From Anaerolineae bacterium (GTDB lineage: Bacteria; Chloroflexota; Anaerolineae; Caldilineales; Caldilineaceae): a stretch of DNA of 64,000 bases. Location: the NCBI GenBank assembly GCA_030432295.1, contig JAUIHI010000001.1, positions 186,001 to 250,000 of the forward strand, written 5' to 3'. The first letter of the stretch is position 1; each line of letters opens with the position of its first letter. Of this stretch, positions 23,209-37,867 are shown piece after piece. The translations under genes and the position numbers were made by a program. The notes under the pieces were generated by a model. It saw nothing but the letters and a program-made list of their open reading frames with translations. It was not told where the DNA came from and did not search any database.

Positions 23209-26200
23209 TCAGCATTCGCTATAGCCGCAGATGTAACACTTCTTGCAGCCTTCCACATTCAAAAAGGCTGCCTCGCCGCAGTCCGGGCAGAGGTCGCCGA
23301 TGGGACGATCGGCCAGGGGCAGGGCCATCTGTTCACCGCTCACCGGCTCCGGGTGGGCCGGTTGGGTGCTTAGATGCTCGGCGATGACCTGGGCCACGCC
23401 ATCGGGCAAGCTGCGCACCCGGTTGGCCCCAAAGCCCAGGGCTCGCCCGCCGCCGATACCGGCCATCTCGTCCATCACCCAGCGCAGCCGCTCGGACGGG
23501 GGCAGGGAAGCGGGCATCCGCAGGGACAGGCTGATCAGCCGACCCATTGCCTCGCTGACTGCGCTCACATCGCTGCCTGCCTTGCCAATGTTCAGGAAGA
23601 CCTCGAAAGGCTCGCCCTCCTCGTCGTTGTTGACTGTGATGTAGGCCGTGCCCAGAGGCGTATCCTTGCGATAGGTGCTGCCCTGCAACAGTTTGGGCCG
23701 GGGGCGTTTGGTAAAGACCGCCGGTGCTTCGCTGGGGTGATAGCCGTTGGTTCCATTGCTGCCGTTGACATACCCATTCGGGCTGCTTTCGACCGCGGCC
23801 TCCCCGTCGCTCTTCTTCTCTTTGGTCGCTTTTGTTTCCAGCACCACTTCCTGGCGGCTGCCCGTCACATAGACTGTCAAGCCTTTGCAGCCCAACTCCC
23901 AGGCCAGCAGATAGGCCTTCGCCACATCTTCTTCGGTCGCCCCTTCAGAGAAGTTGCAGGTCTTGGAAATGCTGTTGTCCACAAACGCCTGAATCGCGGC
24001 CTGCATGCGCACGTGCTCATCCGCGCTGATGTCGCTGCTGACCACAAAGGCGTGGCGTAACTCTTCGGGCAGACTGTCCAAGTCCTGGCACGAACCGTAG
24101 GTCGCCACGTGCTGTTTGATGCGCTGCTTCTGGGCCTCGGGCAGATCGGTCCGTTCCAGGGCTTCGTCAAAGAGGGGGCTGGTATAGGCCAGTTCCACAT
24201 CTTTGTCGCCGTCTTTGAAGTGACGGATGTAGCCCAGGGCAAAGACCGGCTCACAGCCGTAGCCCTCACAGCCGCTGACGGTGGCAATTGTGCCCGTGGG
24301 TGCAACCGTCGTCTGGGCCGCGTTGCGGATGCCGTGGCGCTGGATGCCCCCGACGATTTCAGCCCAATCGACCGACGGGCGTTTCCAATCCCGGCTGTAG
24401 GGGGCAATGGGTGTGGGGGGCTGCCAGGCCATCCCGCCCGCCTTCTCCGGGTCGTAGATGCTGCCCTGGAAAGCCAGGAACGGCCCCCGCTCCTCAGAGA
24501 GTTCGATGCTCTTTGCCATGCAGTGATAGCGCACAAACTCCATCACCTGTCCGGCAAACTCCTGGCCCTCTTCGCTGCCGTAGCGGATGCCCAATTTGTA
24601 CATCAGATCGCCCAGGCCCATAATGCCCAGGCCGATGCGCCGGGCACGGAAAGCCGCTTCCGCCACTTCCGGGATAGCAGGCACATAGGCGTTGGCGCTC
24701 ACCACATCGTCCAGAAAGTGGGTGCTCTCCCGCACCGTACGTTCCAGCGCGGGCCAATCCACAATCGTTTCGCCCTCCGCGTCTTCCGCTACATGCACGC
24801 CCAGATTGATCGACCCCAGGCAGCAGTTCTCGTAGGGACCAAGCCACTGTTCACCGCAGTTGTGGACAACAATGCCGTTGGCAATAAATGAGTGTGTCGT
24901 CGGCTGGGTCAGGTCGTAGACCATCTCCTTGCCTTCGTGGACCAGCCGCGTCACCCGGGCCGTAAAGCTTTCCTGATAGGGTCCCCGCTGCATTCGTTCC
25001 AGATAGGCCAGCAAAGCACTCTGCTTGGCCTGGCTCAGAAAACCAATCTGCTCTGCAAAGCGAATGAGATTGTTTTTGGAAACAGCCAATTCGTGATAAG
25101 CCTGGCAGAAATACTCCTGATACCCGCCTTTGCCGTCTGGTAGTCGCCGCATACCGGCTGGACGCCGCTCCTGATAAATGCGACTAAAGATGCCAAAATT
25201 GAGCAAAACCCGCTGAACGTCTTGCAGTAGACCTTCACTTACAGATGTCAGGCGTACTGTACAGCCTTTGTTGCCGCCATCGTTGACTGTGCCATCCGCG
25301 GTAAATAGCGCCTGGAGGAACGCCTGCTGGGTTTGCTGCGTGCCGCGCAGGATTACATCGGGCACCTGCAACTTCTCCAAATCCAGACCGTACTCTTCTG
25401 CCAGCAAACGCAGCCGATCCGATTGGACCCGTACTTCATCCCGTTCGAGGATCTCCGTAATACCTACTGGATAACTGCGGCTGTGCTCGGCGCTGTATCG
25501 GCGATCTGTATCCACCACAGCCGTTACTGCCTCGGCAAAGAGCGGCGCCAATTCTGTCTTTTCTTCGCCAAAGAAGGAGAGAACAGCACGAATCTGATTG
25601 ACAGTACCATCGCCCACCAGCCAGCCGAGAACCAGCCCCAAATCCCGCGTTCCAGCTGTCCCAAATGCGCCAGGCTGGTTGAGGATATGTACCCGTTCGC
25701 CCGGCTGAAGATGTTGGGCTTCCACCCACCCCCGGGCTGTCATTACCCGATGATTTCCAGTCAGTCGCAGAGAATAACCTTCTTTTGTTTCCAACCGATA
25801 GACATCTTTGACACCGGTCTCGAAAACCTCGCTGGCTGGCTGGATGGACTCCACACCAAAACGCCCATCAACAACTATATCTTGCCTTTGTCCTGAACGG
25901 GCCAGAACATCTGCCCTTTGCAGACCATCAGCGGTGTAAATTAACGTTTCGCCTGTCACGCATGGGTTTGTCGCTTCCAGATCATACAGATGGGGTACGG
26001 GATTCGAGCGGTTGGCCGCGTCGATGAAGAGCGCGCCCGGCTCGCCGTTGCGGTGCGCGTAGTGAATGATTTTGTCGAAGAGTTCCCGCGCCCGCACGCT
26101 CTTCCAGACTTTGCCATCTCGTGGGCTGCGCAGGTCAAAGTCGGCGTCGTTCTTCACCGCCTGCATGAACTCATCGGTGATGGCGACGGAAATGTTGAAG

Positions 26201-26904
26201 TTCGTGACTGTCCCCTCTTCCGCTTTGCAGGTGATGAACTGCTCGATGTCCGGGTGGTCCACCCGCAGCACGCCCATATTGGCCCCACGCCTGGTTCCGC
26301 CCTGGGCAATCTCCCCAAAGGCCTGATCGTAGACCCGCAGAAAGCCCACTGGCCCGGTCGCCCGCCCGGAGGAAGTATGCACCACATCGCCTTTGGGGCG
26401 CAGACGGCTGAAGCTGAAGCCGTTGCCGCCGCCGGTCTGTTGAATCAGCGCGGCCACGCGTAGGGTGCTGAAGATACCGTCCGAGTCCCGCCCCATATCG
26501 TCGGCGATGGGCAGGACAAAGCAGGCTGCCAACTGGCCCAGTGGCGTACCCGCGCCGGTGAAGGTGGGGCTGTTGGGGAAGAAGCGCAGTTCGGTGAGCA
26601 GATCGTAGAATGTCTGGGTCGTGGCCTCCACATCCCCGCCGTGGGCTGCCTCTGCGCTGGCAATGTGGTTTGCCACACGATAGAACATCCCCGCCGACGT
26701 TTCCAGCAGGGTGCCGTCAATGTCCCGGCGCAGGTAACGGCGTTCCAGCACTTTCAGACTGTTTTCGCTCAGGTTAATAATTTCATCGTCTACATAACTC
26801 GGTGGAACGATATGCTCCTTTTCACCCTTGACGATCTCTCGGGTCGTGAACGTTTTGGACGGGGTAGAGGCCAGGGTGGTGGGGGAATCAGCCAAAGGTG
26901 ACAT
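23209..26904 (-). CDS. nrdJ: Class II (adenosylcobalamin-dependent) ribonucleotide reductase with an intein
   Basis: The 1231-residue precursor makes dNTPs from ribonucleotides. Extein 1 (1-314) holds [11 protein letters not shown] and [19 protein letters not shown], typical of the NrdJ barrel. Residues 315-682 are an intein. Extein 2 (683-1231) opens with [12 protein letters not shown]: the thiyl-radical Cys and a redox Cys 11 residues later, as in Thermotoga NrdJ (C322/C333). The C-terminus ends in a four-Cys zinc-ribbon-like tail (CPDCG through CYICGYSEC) that likely re-reduces the active site. Spliced length is 863 residues, normal for NrdJ. I chose the ATG at 26904 with GAGAGGAGC upstream; the frame opens earlier at TTG 26979. 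nrdR precedes it by 219 bp. Confidence 0.95.
24859..25962 (-). other. Intein with LAGLIDADG homing endonuclease inside NrdJ
   Basis: This 368-residue in-frame insertion begins with Cys (CVTGETLIY) and ends VVHN before a Cys +1 residue, so all splice-junction residues are present. Block B is TGNHRVMT and the late block F/G region is [12 protein letters not shown] to VVHN. Two LAGLIDADG motifs, [12 protein letters not shown] and [12 protein letters not shown], both keep the acidic residue, so the endonuclease may be active. The insertion point is exactly before the catalytic thiyl-radical Cys, which also serves as the +1 nucleophile of splicing. Unspliced protein would therefore be inactive. 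Confidence 0.93.
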
Positions 26905-27123
26905 CGTAGCGTGCTCCTCTCGCAAAAGAAGGTGAAAATGGGTACAAGACGCGTGACGGCGTACGAGGCTGGCGTCCAAGCGCCTTGCTGGGGCGCGCCA
27001 CGTAGTATCAATCGTCAGTTATAGATCGCAGACTTTAAGCGAAGCGATGGACGAACGAACCGAACGTTTTAAGAGGAAAATCCTGGTTGAACAGAGTCAA
27101 TTTCCAGATTGGAGGCGTACGCT

Positions 27124-33970: not shown

Positions 33971-35410
33971 TCATTCTGTCAGACGCGCCAGCAGCATCTC
34001 CCCGATTTGGTAGCTCGTCCCCGCGCCCAGAGTAATCACTACATCGCCCGCGGTCACATTTTCTGCCAGATAATCGGCAATTGCTTCCAACCCGCCGATG
34101 TGCTGGATGGCCGGATGGTCGCTGGCCGCGACCAGTTCGCTGGCCTTGAGGCTTCCGTCGTCGTTCTCCCGTGCAGCGTAGATGTCGGTGACGATCACTC
34201 GGTCGGCGTGGGCGAAACTGGCCGCCATTTCGTGTAGCATTTGGCGGGTGCGGCTGAATGTGTGGGGCTGAAAGATGGCCCAGATGCGTCGTGTGCCAAA
34301 ACGGGCGCGGGCTGCGGCGAGGGTCGCCATCACTTCCGTGGGGTGATGCGCGTAGTCATCGATGACAGTGACGCCCTTTGCCTCGCCTTTCCACTCAAAA
34401 CGCCGGGAAATGCCTGCGTAGCGGCCCAGGGCAGCCGCGGCATCTGTCACCGCAAGCCCGCAGTAGCGGGCCACCGCCAGGGCTGCCATCCCATTCCACA
34501 CATTGTGGATCCCCGGCACAGAGAGCGAAAGAGTGACAAGCGGTGCACCCCACCACAGAATTTCGGTGGTGTAGCAGCCATTGGGGGCAACGATCGGTGC
34601 CACTGCCCGAAGCTCGGCATCTTCGTCCAGGCCATAGCTGATCCACCAGCCCCGGGAAGGGGAGAAGGCCCGTAGCTCCTCTGCGCCATCGTCATCCCCG
34701 CAGGCGATCACCAGCCCGTCGTGCCGGGTCTGGTCCACAAATTGGGCAAAGGCCCGCTGAAAACTGGCCGGGGTCGGATAGCAATCCGGGTGGTCCCACT
34801 CCACATTGGTGAGGACCGACACCTGGGGTGACAGCCCCAGAAACATCCGGTCGTACTCGTCGGCCTCGATCACAAACCACTCTGCGCTGCCGTTGTGGGC
34901 GTTGCCATAGCCGGGCAGGTCGGAGCCGATAATATAGCCGGCGTCGATGCCATTTTCGTGTAGCGTATGGACGATCATTGCGGTCGTTGTGCTTTTGCCG
35001 TGGGTTCCCGCCACGGCAATCACAGACCTCTCTGCCAACAGCACAGCCAGGAATTCCCGCCGTTTGACCACGGGAATTCCCAACGCCTCCGCGGCCTGAC
35101 GTTCCGGGTTTTCCGCATTCACCGCGCTGCTGATCAACACCACATCAGGCCGCTGATCAGCCGGCAGGCTGGTGAGATTCTCTGCGATCTGCGAGGGATA
35201 GACCTGAATTCCCCGCTGCTGCAAACTTTCGGTGCGGGCGCTGGATTGGGCATCGCTGCCGCTGACAATTACGCCACTCTCGTGGAGGACAGTGGCGATG
35301 GGGGTAAGCCCGGCCCCGCCAATGCCCAGCAGGTGAACCCGCAGGGTTGGGTCGGCTTTGCTCAGCCGTTCCTGCCAGCTCGTCGTATTCCCGACTGATA
35401 AAGAAGTCAT
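33971..35410 (-). CDS. murC: UDP-N-acetylmuramate--L-alanine ligase
   Basis: The 479-residue Mur ligase adds L-Ala to UDP-MurNAc. The N-terminal UDP-binding motif [14 protein letters not shown] is followed by the P-loop [37 protein letters not shown] and [11 protein letters not shown] are the MurC-type catalytic and C-domain signatures. The length is normal. Confidence 0.97.
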
Positions 35411-35429: not shown

Positions 35430-35984
35430 CTATCCCTTGGCCCGCAACAGCAGAATCAGCGCGATGGGAATCATTAAATAGCCGGTGTTTGTGGCGAGCT
35501 TCTGGGGTAATAGTTCCACCATCACCTGCGCGGTGGCCGACAGGGGCTGCTCGATTCCCTGTCCAAAGAATCGGAAGGGGTAGTCGTACAATGCCTGATA
35601 GAACCAGAGTGTGCCCGCGAAAAAGTATCCATTCATCAGGCCGACGGCAATGCTGATGTATGTGCCAACCGGCGGCCCGGCCTGTTTACCCCCCAGGTTG
35701 AGCGTGTTGCCCGAATAATTGGCAAAGACTGCGCCGATAAACAGAACGCTATAAACGGAACAGAGGAGCAGATTGGAAGCTTCTGTGGCTGTGCTGAAAT
35801 CGGGAAAGACCGTCTGGACCAGCGTAAGTAGCAGCGGGTTGAGTCTGCCATCGATTACATCCAACAAAAAGATGGCGACAAGAATGATTACCGTTGTACT
35901 TAATTCTTTGGCATAGCCTCTGGCTATGCTGATAAATACAAAGACGAGCGCAATGGTGGTGAAATAGCTTTCAATCGATCCCAT
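35430..35984 (-). CDS. Unrecognised multi-pass membrane protein within the dcw cluster
   Basis: I do not recognise this 184-residue protein with confidence. It has about five hydrophobic segments, near 6-22, 27-45, 75-92, 105-128 and 168-184, with short loops. The overall look is CvpA-like. It is separated by 7 bp from another membrane protein upstream and lies between murG and murC, so it is almost certainly made with the cell-wall enzymes. The gene has dcw-like base composition and ends just before murC. A role in envelope assembly or as a small partner of the divisome is a guess from position. Confidence 0.65.
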
Positions 35985-35991
35985 GGCGTCT

Positions 35992-36645
35992 CTACTTTTT
36001 CTGGGCCTGAGATTTACGCCCGCCAAATAGTGTGTAGGCTGCGATCCCGATGATCAGAATGATTGTAATAATCAGCAATGTGCGCTGCTCACTCAACGAG
36101 ATGCCCCCAAAAAAGGCCCGTAGCTGAACATCCAGAAAGTCCTGCAAGCGATTGACGACCTGCTGTAGCTGCGTGCCAGGGGGCGCCTCGGCCAGATTTT
36201 CTTCGGATGTGAAAATCGGGAACAGCCGGGTTGCAATCAGGCTTAAGTAGAGAATCCCATTGGCGACCCCGACCAGAAAGCCCAGAGACTGGGATTTCCC
36301 CGCATCCTTCTTGAAAATCCGATCGCCCAGGAAATAGAGGCCGACCAGTATCAGCGCCCACAGCAGAAAGATGAAAGTCTCCTGGTTGTCCCCGCTGATG
36401 ATGGGGGGCGCTTCAAAAACAGAGAGCAGCCCTTCCTGATCCGACGGGAAACCGGTCAGCGCGTAGTTACCACCGGTGTTGATCAGAAAGGCCAGCCGTC
36501 CCTGAGATTGCAGCAGGCCCAGATAGGTGGCAAACCCCAACACAAAGACCAGTGCTTCTTTCTTCCAGCCCCGGCGCGCACCGATCAGCCCGAAGAAGAC
36601 GAAATAGATTAGGAGTGCAATGAAACTTTCTGGTTGGCTAAGCAT
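35992..36645 (-). CDS. Unrecognised CvpA-like membrane protein within the dcw cluster
   Basis: The 217-residue protein has hydrophobic segments near 8-22, 29-45, 89-108, 120-140 and 188-210. The opening, a helix followed by GARRGWKKEALVFVLGF, is reminiscent of CvpA/colicin V production proteins, in which a short basic loop links the first two helices. It begins 25 bp downstream of murG and ends in a basic tail (GGRKSQAQKK). The paired gene follows after 7 bp. No function can be assigned, but the tight spacing implies cotranscription with murG and murC. Confidence 0.65.
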   Translation of the reverse strand: MLSQPESFIALLIYFVFFGLIGARRGWKKEALVFVLGFATYLGLLQSQGRLAFLINTGGNYALTGFPSDQEGLLSVFEAPPIISGDNQETFIFLLWALILVGLYFLGDRIFKKDAGKSQSLGFLVGVANGILYLSLIATRLFPIFTSEENLAEAPPGTQLQQVVNRLQDFLDVQLRAFFGGISLSEQRTLLIITIILIIGIAAYTLFGGRKSQAQKK

Positions 36646-36670: not shown

Positions 36671-37867
36671 CTATGCCGGACTGCCCAGGCGGACAATGGC
36701 TTGGGCGATATTCAACCCCGCCTGGGGGACCGCAAGTGTCGCTGCGTCCGCGCCCATTTGCAGGCGACGGTTTTCGTCGGCCAGCAACTCGTTCAGAGTG
36801 GGCAGCAACTTTTCCGACAACGCTTCGTCCCGAATAATCACCGCGCCCCCGCAATCGGCCAGTTTCTGGGCATTGGGAAACTGGTGGCCGCCGGAGATGG
36901 GCAGGGGGACCAGTACGGACGGCAGCCGGGCAATCGGGAATTCTGCCAGTGTGCTGGCTCCCGCACGGGCCACGGCCAAATCCGCCGCGGCCAGGGCCAG
37001 GGCCATCTCGTCGTGCAGATAGTCCACTGGATGATACCGCCTGGACAGGCTCTCTGGCAAGACGGGCATGTGCTCAGCCAGCAAAGGCCAATCCCGCACG
37101 CCCACCACATGCACAATGTGGGCCTGGGGCAAAAGGTGGGGCAGGGCCGACCAGATGGCCTGGTTGATGCTGCGAGACCCCTGGCTTCCCCCAAAAACGA
37201 GCAGCAGGGGCAACCGATCTTCCCCTTCTTCCCAATCAAACTGCAATGCTGCCGCCAGCTTTTGCCGGGCTTCCTCCCGATTGTTGACCGCATCCAGCAG
37301 AGCCTGGCGCACGGGATAGCCGGTGACGACGGCCTTTGCGCCAAAGTACGCGGCGGTTTCGGGAAAGCTGACCGCCACCTGCTGGGCGATAGTGCTGAGC
37401 ATCCGAATCGCCAGTCCCGGTGTCAGGTCGGGCAGATAGACCAGCACAGGAATCCGGCGCAGGCGACAGGCGATGGCGACAGGTGTGCAGACATAGCCGC
37501 CGGTGACAAAGCAGACATCCGGGCGAAAATCGGCCAGCAGCGCCAGCGATTGCCGTATGCCCACCACCATTTTGCCTGCATTTGCCAGCGCCGTCAAAGG
37601 GTTCATCCCCCGCAGTTGCCCGGTCTGGATGGACGCAAAGGGGACGCCCTCGGCCTCTACCAGCGAGCGCTCTACCCCATTCGGGCTGCCCGCCCACAAC
37701 AGCGCGATCTCATTTTCGGACGCCGCCCCGTGTGCTGCTGCGAGTGCCGCTTTTGGATCGGGCTGGCCGTTTACTCTTTGTGGCAGTGGCTTTGCGAGAT
37801 GGGGCAGAACTGCCAGCGCCGGGTAGACGTGTCCGCCGGTTCCCCCACCGGAGATCAAAAGTCGCAT
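36671..37867 (-). CDS. murG: Undecaprenyldiphospho-muramoylpentapeptide beta-N-acetylglucosaminyltransferase
   Basis: The 398-residue enzyme converts lipid I to lipid II at the inner membrane face. The N-terminal glycine loop [14 protein letters not shown] is at 7-20, and VFGGSQGSRSIN plus ARAGASTLAEFPIARLPSVLVPLP mark the C-terminal UDP-GlcNAc site. About 25 extra residues (26-54, Pro/Ala-rich) separate the first helix from the second strand, compared with Escherichia MurG. The ATG start is fixed by the glycine loop, so the first 52 codons overlap the end of ftsW by 158 bp in a different frame. No strong ribosome binding site precedes it, consistent with coupling to ftsW translation. Confidence 0.96.
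   Translation of the reverse strand: MRLLISGGGTGGHVYPALAVLPHLAKPLPQRVNGQPDPKAALAAAHGAASENEIALLWAGSPNGVERSLVEAEGVPFASIQTGQLRGMNPLTALANAGKMVVGIRQSLALLADFRPDVCFVTGGYVCTPVAIACRLRRIPVLVYLPDLTPGLAIRMLSTIAQQVAVSFPETAAYFGAKAVVTGYPVRQALLDAVNNREEARQKLAAALQFDWEEGEDRLPLLLVFGGSQGSRSINQAIWSALPHLLPQAHIVHVVGVRDWPLLAEHMPVLPESLSRRYHPVDYLHDEMALALAAADLAVARAGASTLAEFPIARLPSVLVPLPISGGHQFPNAQKLADCGGAVIIRDEALSEKLLPTLNELLADENRRLQMGADAATLAVPQAGLNIAQAIVRLGSPA

What the first reader, a model, noticed from the sequence alone, without database searches (positions are those of the whole stretch)
35430..36645. Two uncharacterised multi-pass membrane proteins inserted between murG and murC
Two adjacent genes, 7 bp apart, encode proteins of about 217 and 184 residues with about five hydrophobic segments each. 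They share operon spacing with the Mur enzymes and resemble CvpA-type proteins in layout. I know of no standard dcw gene at this position. They are candidates for unstudied division or envelope factors of this lineage.
Basis: inference. Interest (0 to 1): 0.62.

Follow-up and report, generated by a model that had tools for sequence, protein, structure and literature searches.

The report
Paired CvpA-type genes in division cluster
Two small membrane-protein genes sitting among the cell-wall and cell-division genes of this Chloroflexota bacterium are an anciently duplicated pair related to the poorly understood CvpA family, kept at this spot across most of their class, so they are probably a regular but unstudied part of its wall-building machinery.

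Summary
Genes X1 (36645-35992, 217 aa) and X2 (35984-35430, 184 aa) lie 7 bp apart between murG and murC, with no room for a promoter. Both look like N-out, C-in proteins with five hydrophobic segments and are under purifying selection.

They are not family-less. Profile comparisons show X1 and X2 are homologous to each other and to CvpA (Pfam PF02674): 97% for X1-X2, against about 15% at most for decoys. The window's own copies score below Pfam's cut-off, but most relatives match and several exceed it. No canonical CvpA was found elsewhere in the genome.

The pair is a standing feature of the class. 29 Caldilineaceae genomes carry it between murG and murC. In 150 class genomes, 120 have at least one type, and all 57 pairs on one contig are X1 then X2, same strand. 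Some lineages keep one type; two genomes keep none. A single CvpA-like gene fills the slot in four genomes of other Chloroflexota groups.

Most likely these are CvpA-type membrane partners, probably a heteromer, working with lipid II or septal synthesis. Homology and linkage are shown; function is inferred. MurJ is present, so they are not a substitute flippase. I found no earlier report.

The parts
35992..36645 (-). X1: 217-aa membrane protein (five hydrophobic segments), X1-type CvpA-superfamily paralogue
35430..35984 (-). X2: 184-aa membrane protein (five hydrophobic segments), X2-type CvpA-superfamily paralogue
36556..36576 (-). X1 first cytoplasmic loop, RRGWKKE: the R-G-x3-E signature (R25 94%, G26 97%, E30 89% in 39 X1-type rows)
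36256..36270 (-). X1 hydrophobic segment 4, G-x2-N-G signature (G126, N129, G130; 92-100%)
35904..35921 (-). X2 first cytoplasmic loop, RGYAKE: the R-G-x3-E signature (E27 100% in 39 X2-type rows)
35628..35642 (-). X2 hydrophobic segment 4, G-x2-N-G signature (G115, N118, G119; 97-100%)
35985..35991 (-). 7-nt spacer between X1 stop and X2 start, no room for a promoter
36671..37867 (-). murG, upstream flank
   Evidence: TIGR01133 best hit
33971..35410 (-). murC, downstream flank
   Evidence: TIGR01082

Best explanation
X1 and X2 are anciently duplicated, divergent members of the CvpA (Colicin_V, PF02674) superfamily, fixed between murG and murC in the dcw cluster of Anaerolineae. Shown: homology to each other and to CvpA, fixed order and strand, purifying selection, and shared R-G-x3-E and G-x2-N-G motifs; the N-out/C-in five-segment layout is predicted. 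Inferred: they are translated together from the dcw message and assemble in the cytoplasmic membrane as an X1-X2 complex, or a homomer where only one type remains. Their conserved cytoplasmic loop docks on or tunes the membrane-bound lipid II and septal-synthesis machinery (MurG, FtsW, PBP). They would act as an envelope-homeostasis partner, not as an enzyme or a lipid II flippase. I hold the homology and linkage part at about 0.93 and the specific mechanistic part at about 0.35.
For: hhalign of profiles: X1-X2 97% (E 1e-10), X1-CvpA 94%, X2-CvpA 79%; reversed-profile decoys at most 15.2% and FtsW/MraY decoys at most 1.4%. E. coli CvpA matches the single-gene profile at 94%, X2 at 71% and X1 at 57%, decoys at most 2.5%, and it carries the same R-G-x3-E. 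PF02674 matches 11 of 13 X2-type and 9 of 14 X1-type members, and several murG-murC genes pass the Pfam cut-off. The trees separate canonical CvpA from the dcw-located genes, and X2-type from X1-type. Linkage. dN/dS. Topology. Literature links cvpA to the envelope: it is synthetically lethal with L,D-transpeptidase loss in Agrobacterium (PMC11527210) and needed for deoxycholate resistance in enteric bacteria (PMC6705877). E. coli cvpA sits next to the division gene dedD.
Against: No experiment, localisation or interaction data exist here. Gene position in an old operon need not mean shared function. Two class genomes (G047, G344) have murG and murC adjacent with nothing between and no match to the dcw-type profile elsewhere, so the genes are not universally needed. 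The window's own X1 and X2 score below Pfam's cut-off. Structure models were too poor to use (pLDDT 47.6 and 41.6). The CvpA family itself has no agreed biochemical function.
Confidence: 0.5

Rival explanations
1. Passenger genes: CvpA-type proteins with a general envelope role (stress, secretion or small-molecule export) that simply share the dcw transcript for expression reasons and do not touch the Mur or Fts proteins.
For: Canonical CvpA is linked to colicin V production, biofilm and bile-salt resistance, not to division enzymes (PMC6705877). Single-type loss and two empty slots occur. Other classes carry related CvpA-like genes away from dcw.
Against: The murG-murC slot is kept across most of a class, in fixed order and strand (57 of 57 pairs), with at least one type usually retained.
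Confidence: 0.35
2. A lineage-specific transporter or flippase for lipid II or another wall precursor, replacing MurJ.
For: Polytopic proteins encoded next to the last lipid II synthesis step, murG.
Against: MurJ (TIGR01695) is found in 60 of 61 relatives, including the window genome. The proteins have only about five segments and resemble CvpA, not a MOP-type flippase.
Confidence: 0.04
3. Two unrelated orphan membrane proteins, whose resemblance to CvpA is only shared hydrophobicity.
For: The window's own sequences do not reach the Pfam cut-off; identity between the two types is about 17%.
Against: Reversed and FtsW/MraY decoys, equally hydrophobic, score near zero. Conserved non-hydrophobic motifs line up in both types. 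No other Pfam family recurs among members.
Confidence: 0.04

Closest known systems
CvpA / Colicin_V family (Pfam PF02674), e.g. E. coli CvpA
   Same: Collinear over the first four hydrophobic segments; R-G-x3-E in the first loop is shared with E. coli CvpA; members of both X types match PF02674.
   Different: Encoded inside dcw as a tandem pair; G-x2-N-G in segment 4 where E. coli has G-x2-R-G; a fifth hydrophobic segment with a basic C-tail; separate clade from canonical CvpA of the same class.
Canonical CvpA copies elsewhere in Anaerolineae genomes (e.g. L103-L132)
   Same: Same superfamily by profile comparison.
   Different: Located elsewhere, usually with Q in place of the E of R-G-x3-E; not found in the window genome, whose only PF02674 hit (L001) is a CNNM-like protein by my reading.
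Standard dcw membrane genes (ftsW, mraY, ftsL, ftsQ)
   Same: Same cluster, same strand, close spacing.
   Different: No profile similarity to FtsW or MraY; not one of the 17 genes of the longest dcw version listed in PMC8871954.

Membership tests
CvpA superfamily (PF02674) | Passes the Pfam gathering cut-off | tested here: inconclusive
   Window X1 gives no PF02674 match; X2 scores 9.8 bits against a cut-off of 29.3. Orthologues at the same locus pass it, e.g. G060, G037, G058, G055, G052.
CvpA superfamily (PF02674) | Profile-level homology above matched decoys | tested here: met
CvpA superfamily (PF02674) | R-G-x3-E motif in the first loop, as in E. coli CvpA | tested here: met
CvpA superfamily (PF02674) | Same three-dimensional fold | tested here: inconclusive
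   Models of too low confidence; no relative with a solved structure found by sequence
CvpA superfamily (PF02674) | Phenotype of CvpA (colicin V production, deoxycholate resistance) | not testable with these tools
   Needs mutants
Lipid II flippase (MurJ-type) | MurJ absent from the genome, so that a substitute is needed | tested here: not met
Conserved dcw component of Anaerolineae | Same slot, order and strand across the class | tested here: met
   exceptions G047 and G344

The most novel reading that the evidence does not exclude
The X1-X2 pair is an unrecognised core subunit of the Anaerolineae divisome or lipid II machinery: a CvpA-type heteromer that physically couples MurG to FtsW/PBP, which would give the first known molecular partner of a CvpA protein.
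Probability: 0.25. Interest if true: 0.7.

Novelty: new variant of a known kind. Interest (0 to 1): 0.47.

Why it matters
CvpA proteins are widespread and matter for gut colonisation and envelope integrity, yet their molecular task is unknown. A duplicated, class-wide version locked between murG and murC gives a concrete lead: look for a partner among the lipid II and septal-synthesis proteins. It also adds a lineage-specific gene set to a cluster that has been described as showing gene loss or relocation but likely no gain (PMC8871954).

Tried and rejected
Flippase replacement: rejected, MurJ present. Own-genome CvpA hit L001: rejected, the ORF reads as a CNNM/DUF21-like protein (my reading). 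X1-X2 fusion in G007: rejected, the long ORF is a stop-free frame and X1 lies in another frame. Weak Pfam and NCBIfam hits of X1 and X2 (NnrS, SseB, KdpB): rejected, below cut-off and not shared by relatives.

Full report
Observation. The minus strand carries murG (36671-37867), X1 (35992-36645, 217 aa), X2 (35430-35984, 184 aa) and murC (33971-35410), with spacers of 25, 7 and 19 nt. NCBIfam identifies the surrounding cluster: FtsL-like, PBP, MurF, MraY, MurD, FtsW, MurG, MurC, MurB and Ddl; FtsQ, FtsA and FtsZ follow by my reading of the ORFs. No promoter-like site lies between the genes. The window is from a Caldilineaceae genome: its nearest named relatives are Litorilinea and Caldilineaceae assemblies. 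I take the class to be Anaerolineae from that name; the tool does not state it.

The genes are real. Four same-genus genomes keep both with the same start; dN/dS (NG86) is 0.10-0.15 for X1 and 0.05-0.11 for X2, lower than MurG. Hydrophobic segments and the family-wide distribution of K/R against D/E predict five segments, N outside and C inside, for both. This is a prediction, not a measured topology.

Family. The window's own sequences have no Pfam match over cut-off. Their relatives do: 11 of 13 X2-type and 9 of 14 X1-type members match PF02674 at E 0.1 or better, and no other family recurs. In a PF02674 search of 150 class genomes several matches over the cut-off fall on the murG-murC genes (positions compared). 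Profile-profile comparison gives X1-X2 97%, X1-canonical CvpA 94%, X2-canonical CvpA 79%; reversed profiles give at most 15.2% and FtsW/MraY decoys at most 1.4%. E. coli K-12 CvpA, fetched as an anchor, matches the single-gene profile at 94%, X2 at 71% and X1 at 57%, with decoys at most 2.5%. Both types share R-G-x3-E in loop 1, a Tyr near the end of segment 3, and G-x2-N-G in segment 4.

Evolution. A 99-row tree separates canonical CvpA from the dcw-located genes (100/99) and X2-type from X1-type genes, apart from the G055 pair. X2-type is a well-supported clade; X1-type is not resolved as one clade, so which type is ancestral stays open. Single-gene lineages are of X2-type or of X1-type, which reads as loss of one or the other. 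G055 carries two X2-type copies, a separate duplication. Deep branches are long and the bootstrap of the larger tree had not settled, so finer points are unsure.

Distribution. 29 Caldilineaceae genomes have the pair between murG and murC; one genus (g16, four genomes) has a single divergent ORF there, and four genomes could not be read at this place, mostly because contigs end there. In the class sample of 150 genomes, strong matches give X2-type in 103, X1-type in 75 and either in 120; all 57 pairs on one contig are X1 then X2 on the same strand, median spacing 29 nt by model edges. The murG-murC position itself was checked in about 80 genomes of the class, not in all 150. G047 and G344 have nothing between murG and murC. 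In other Chloroflexota groups, G191, G202, G219 and G277 have one CvpA-like gene there, while most others sampled have murG and murC adjacent. Myxococcota and Bryobacteraceae comparators lack the insert.

Function. CvpA has no agreed biochemical role. It is synthetically lethal with loss of L,D-transpeptidases in Agrobacterium (PMC11527210) and needed for deoxycholate resistance in enteric bacteria (PMC6705877); in E. coli it neighbours dedD. From my own knowledge, the mycobacterial protease MarP, which processes the wall hydrolase RipA (PMC7554673), has a CvpA-like membrane domain; I did not test this here. Together with the murG-murC linkage, this favours a membrane partner of wall synthesis, most likely a heteromer. 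That step is inference. A substitute flippase is unlikely because MurJ is present in 60 of 61 relatives.

Prior reports. Searches for CvpA with murG, and for Chloroflexota or Chloroflexi with dcw terms, found no earlier description; the library holds open-access papers only, so this is weak evidence of novelty.

Verdict. Observation confirmed; interpretation partly supported; a new variant of a known kind, of moderate interest.

Noticed in passing
window 37710-37867: The 3' end of ftsW overlaps the start of murG on the same strand by about 158 nt. Overlaps of roughly 75-210 nt recur in most class loci checked; a few much larger values may just be stop-free frames.
   Followed up: partly
window 23209-26979: A B12-dependent ribonucleotide reductase (NrdJ type) carries an intein; its C-terminal splicing region matches TIGR01443 at residues 687-708.
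   Followed up: partly
G000:C57:8672-10174 (outside the window): murE is not in this dcw cluster but on another contig.
   Followed up: yes
L084 (G055); also G159 and G177: Two X2-type CvpA-like genes in tandem. In G055 they fill the murG-murC slot and look like a separate duplication; G159 and G177 were seen only as two nearby matches.
   Followed up: partly
L163-L177 (other Chloroflexota groups): CvpA-like genes related to the dcw type but away from murG and murC; their neighbourhoods were not studied.
   Followed up: no
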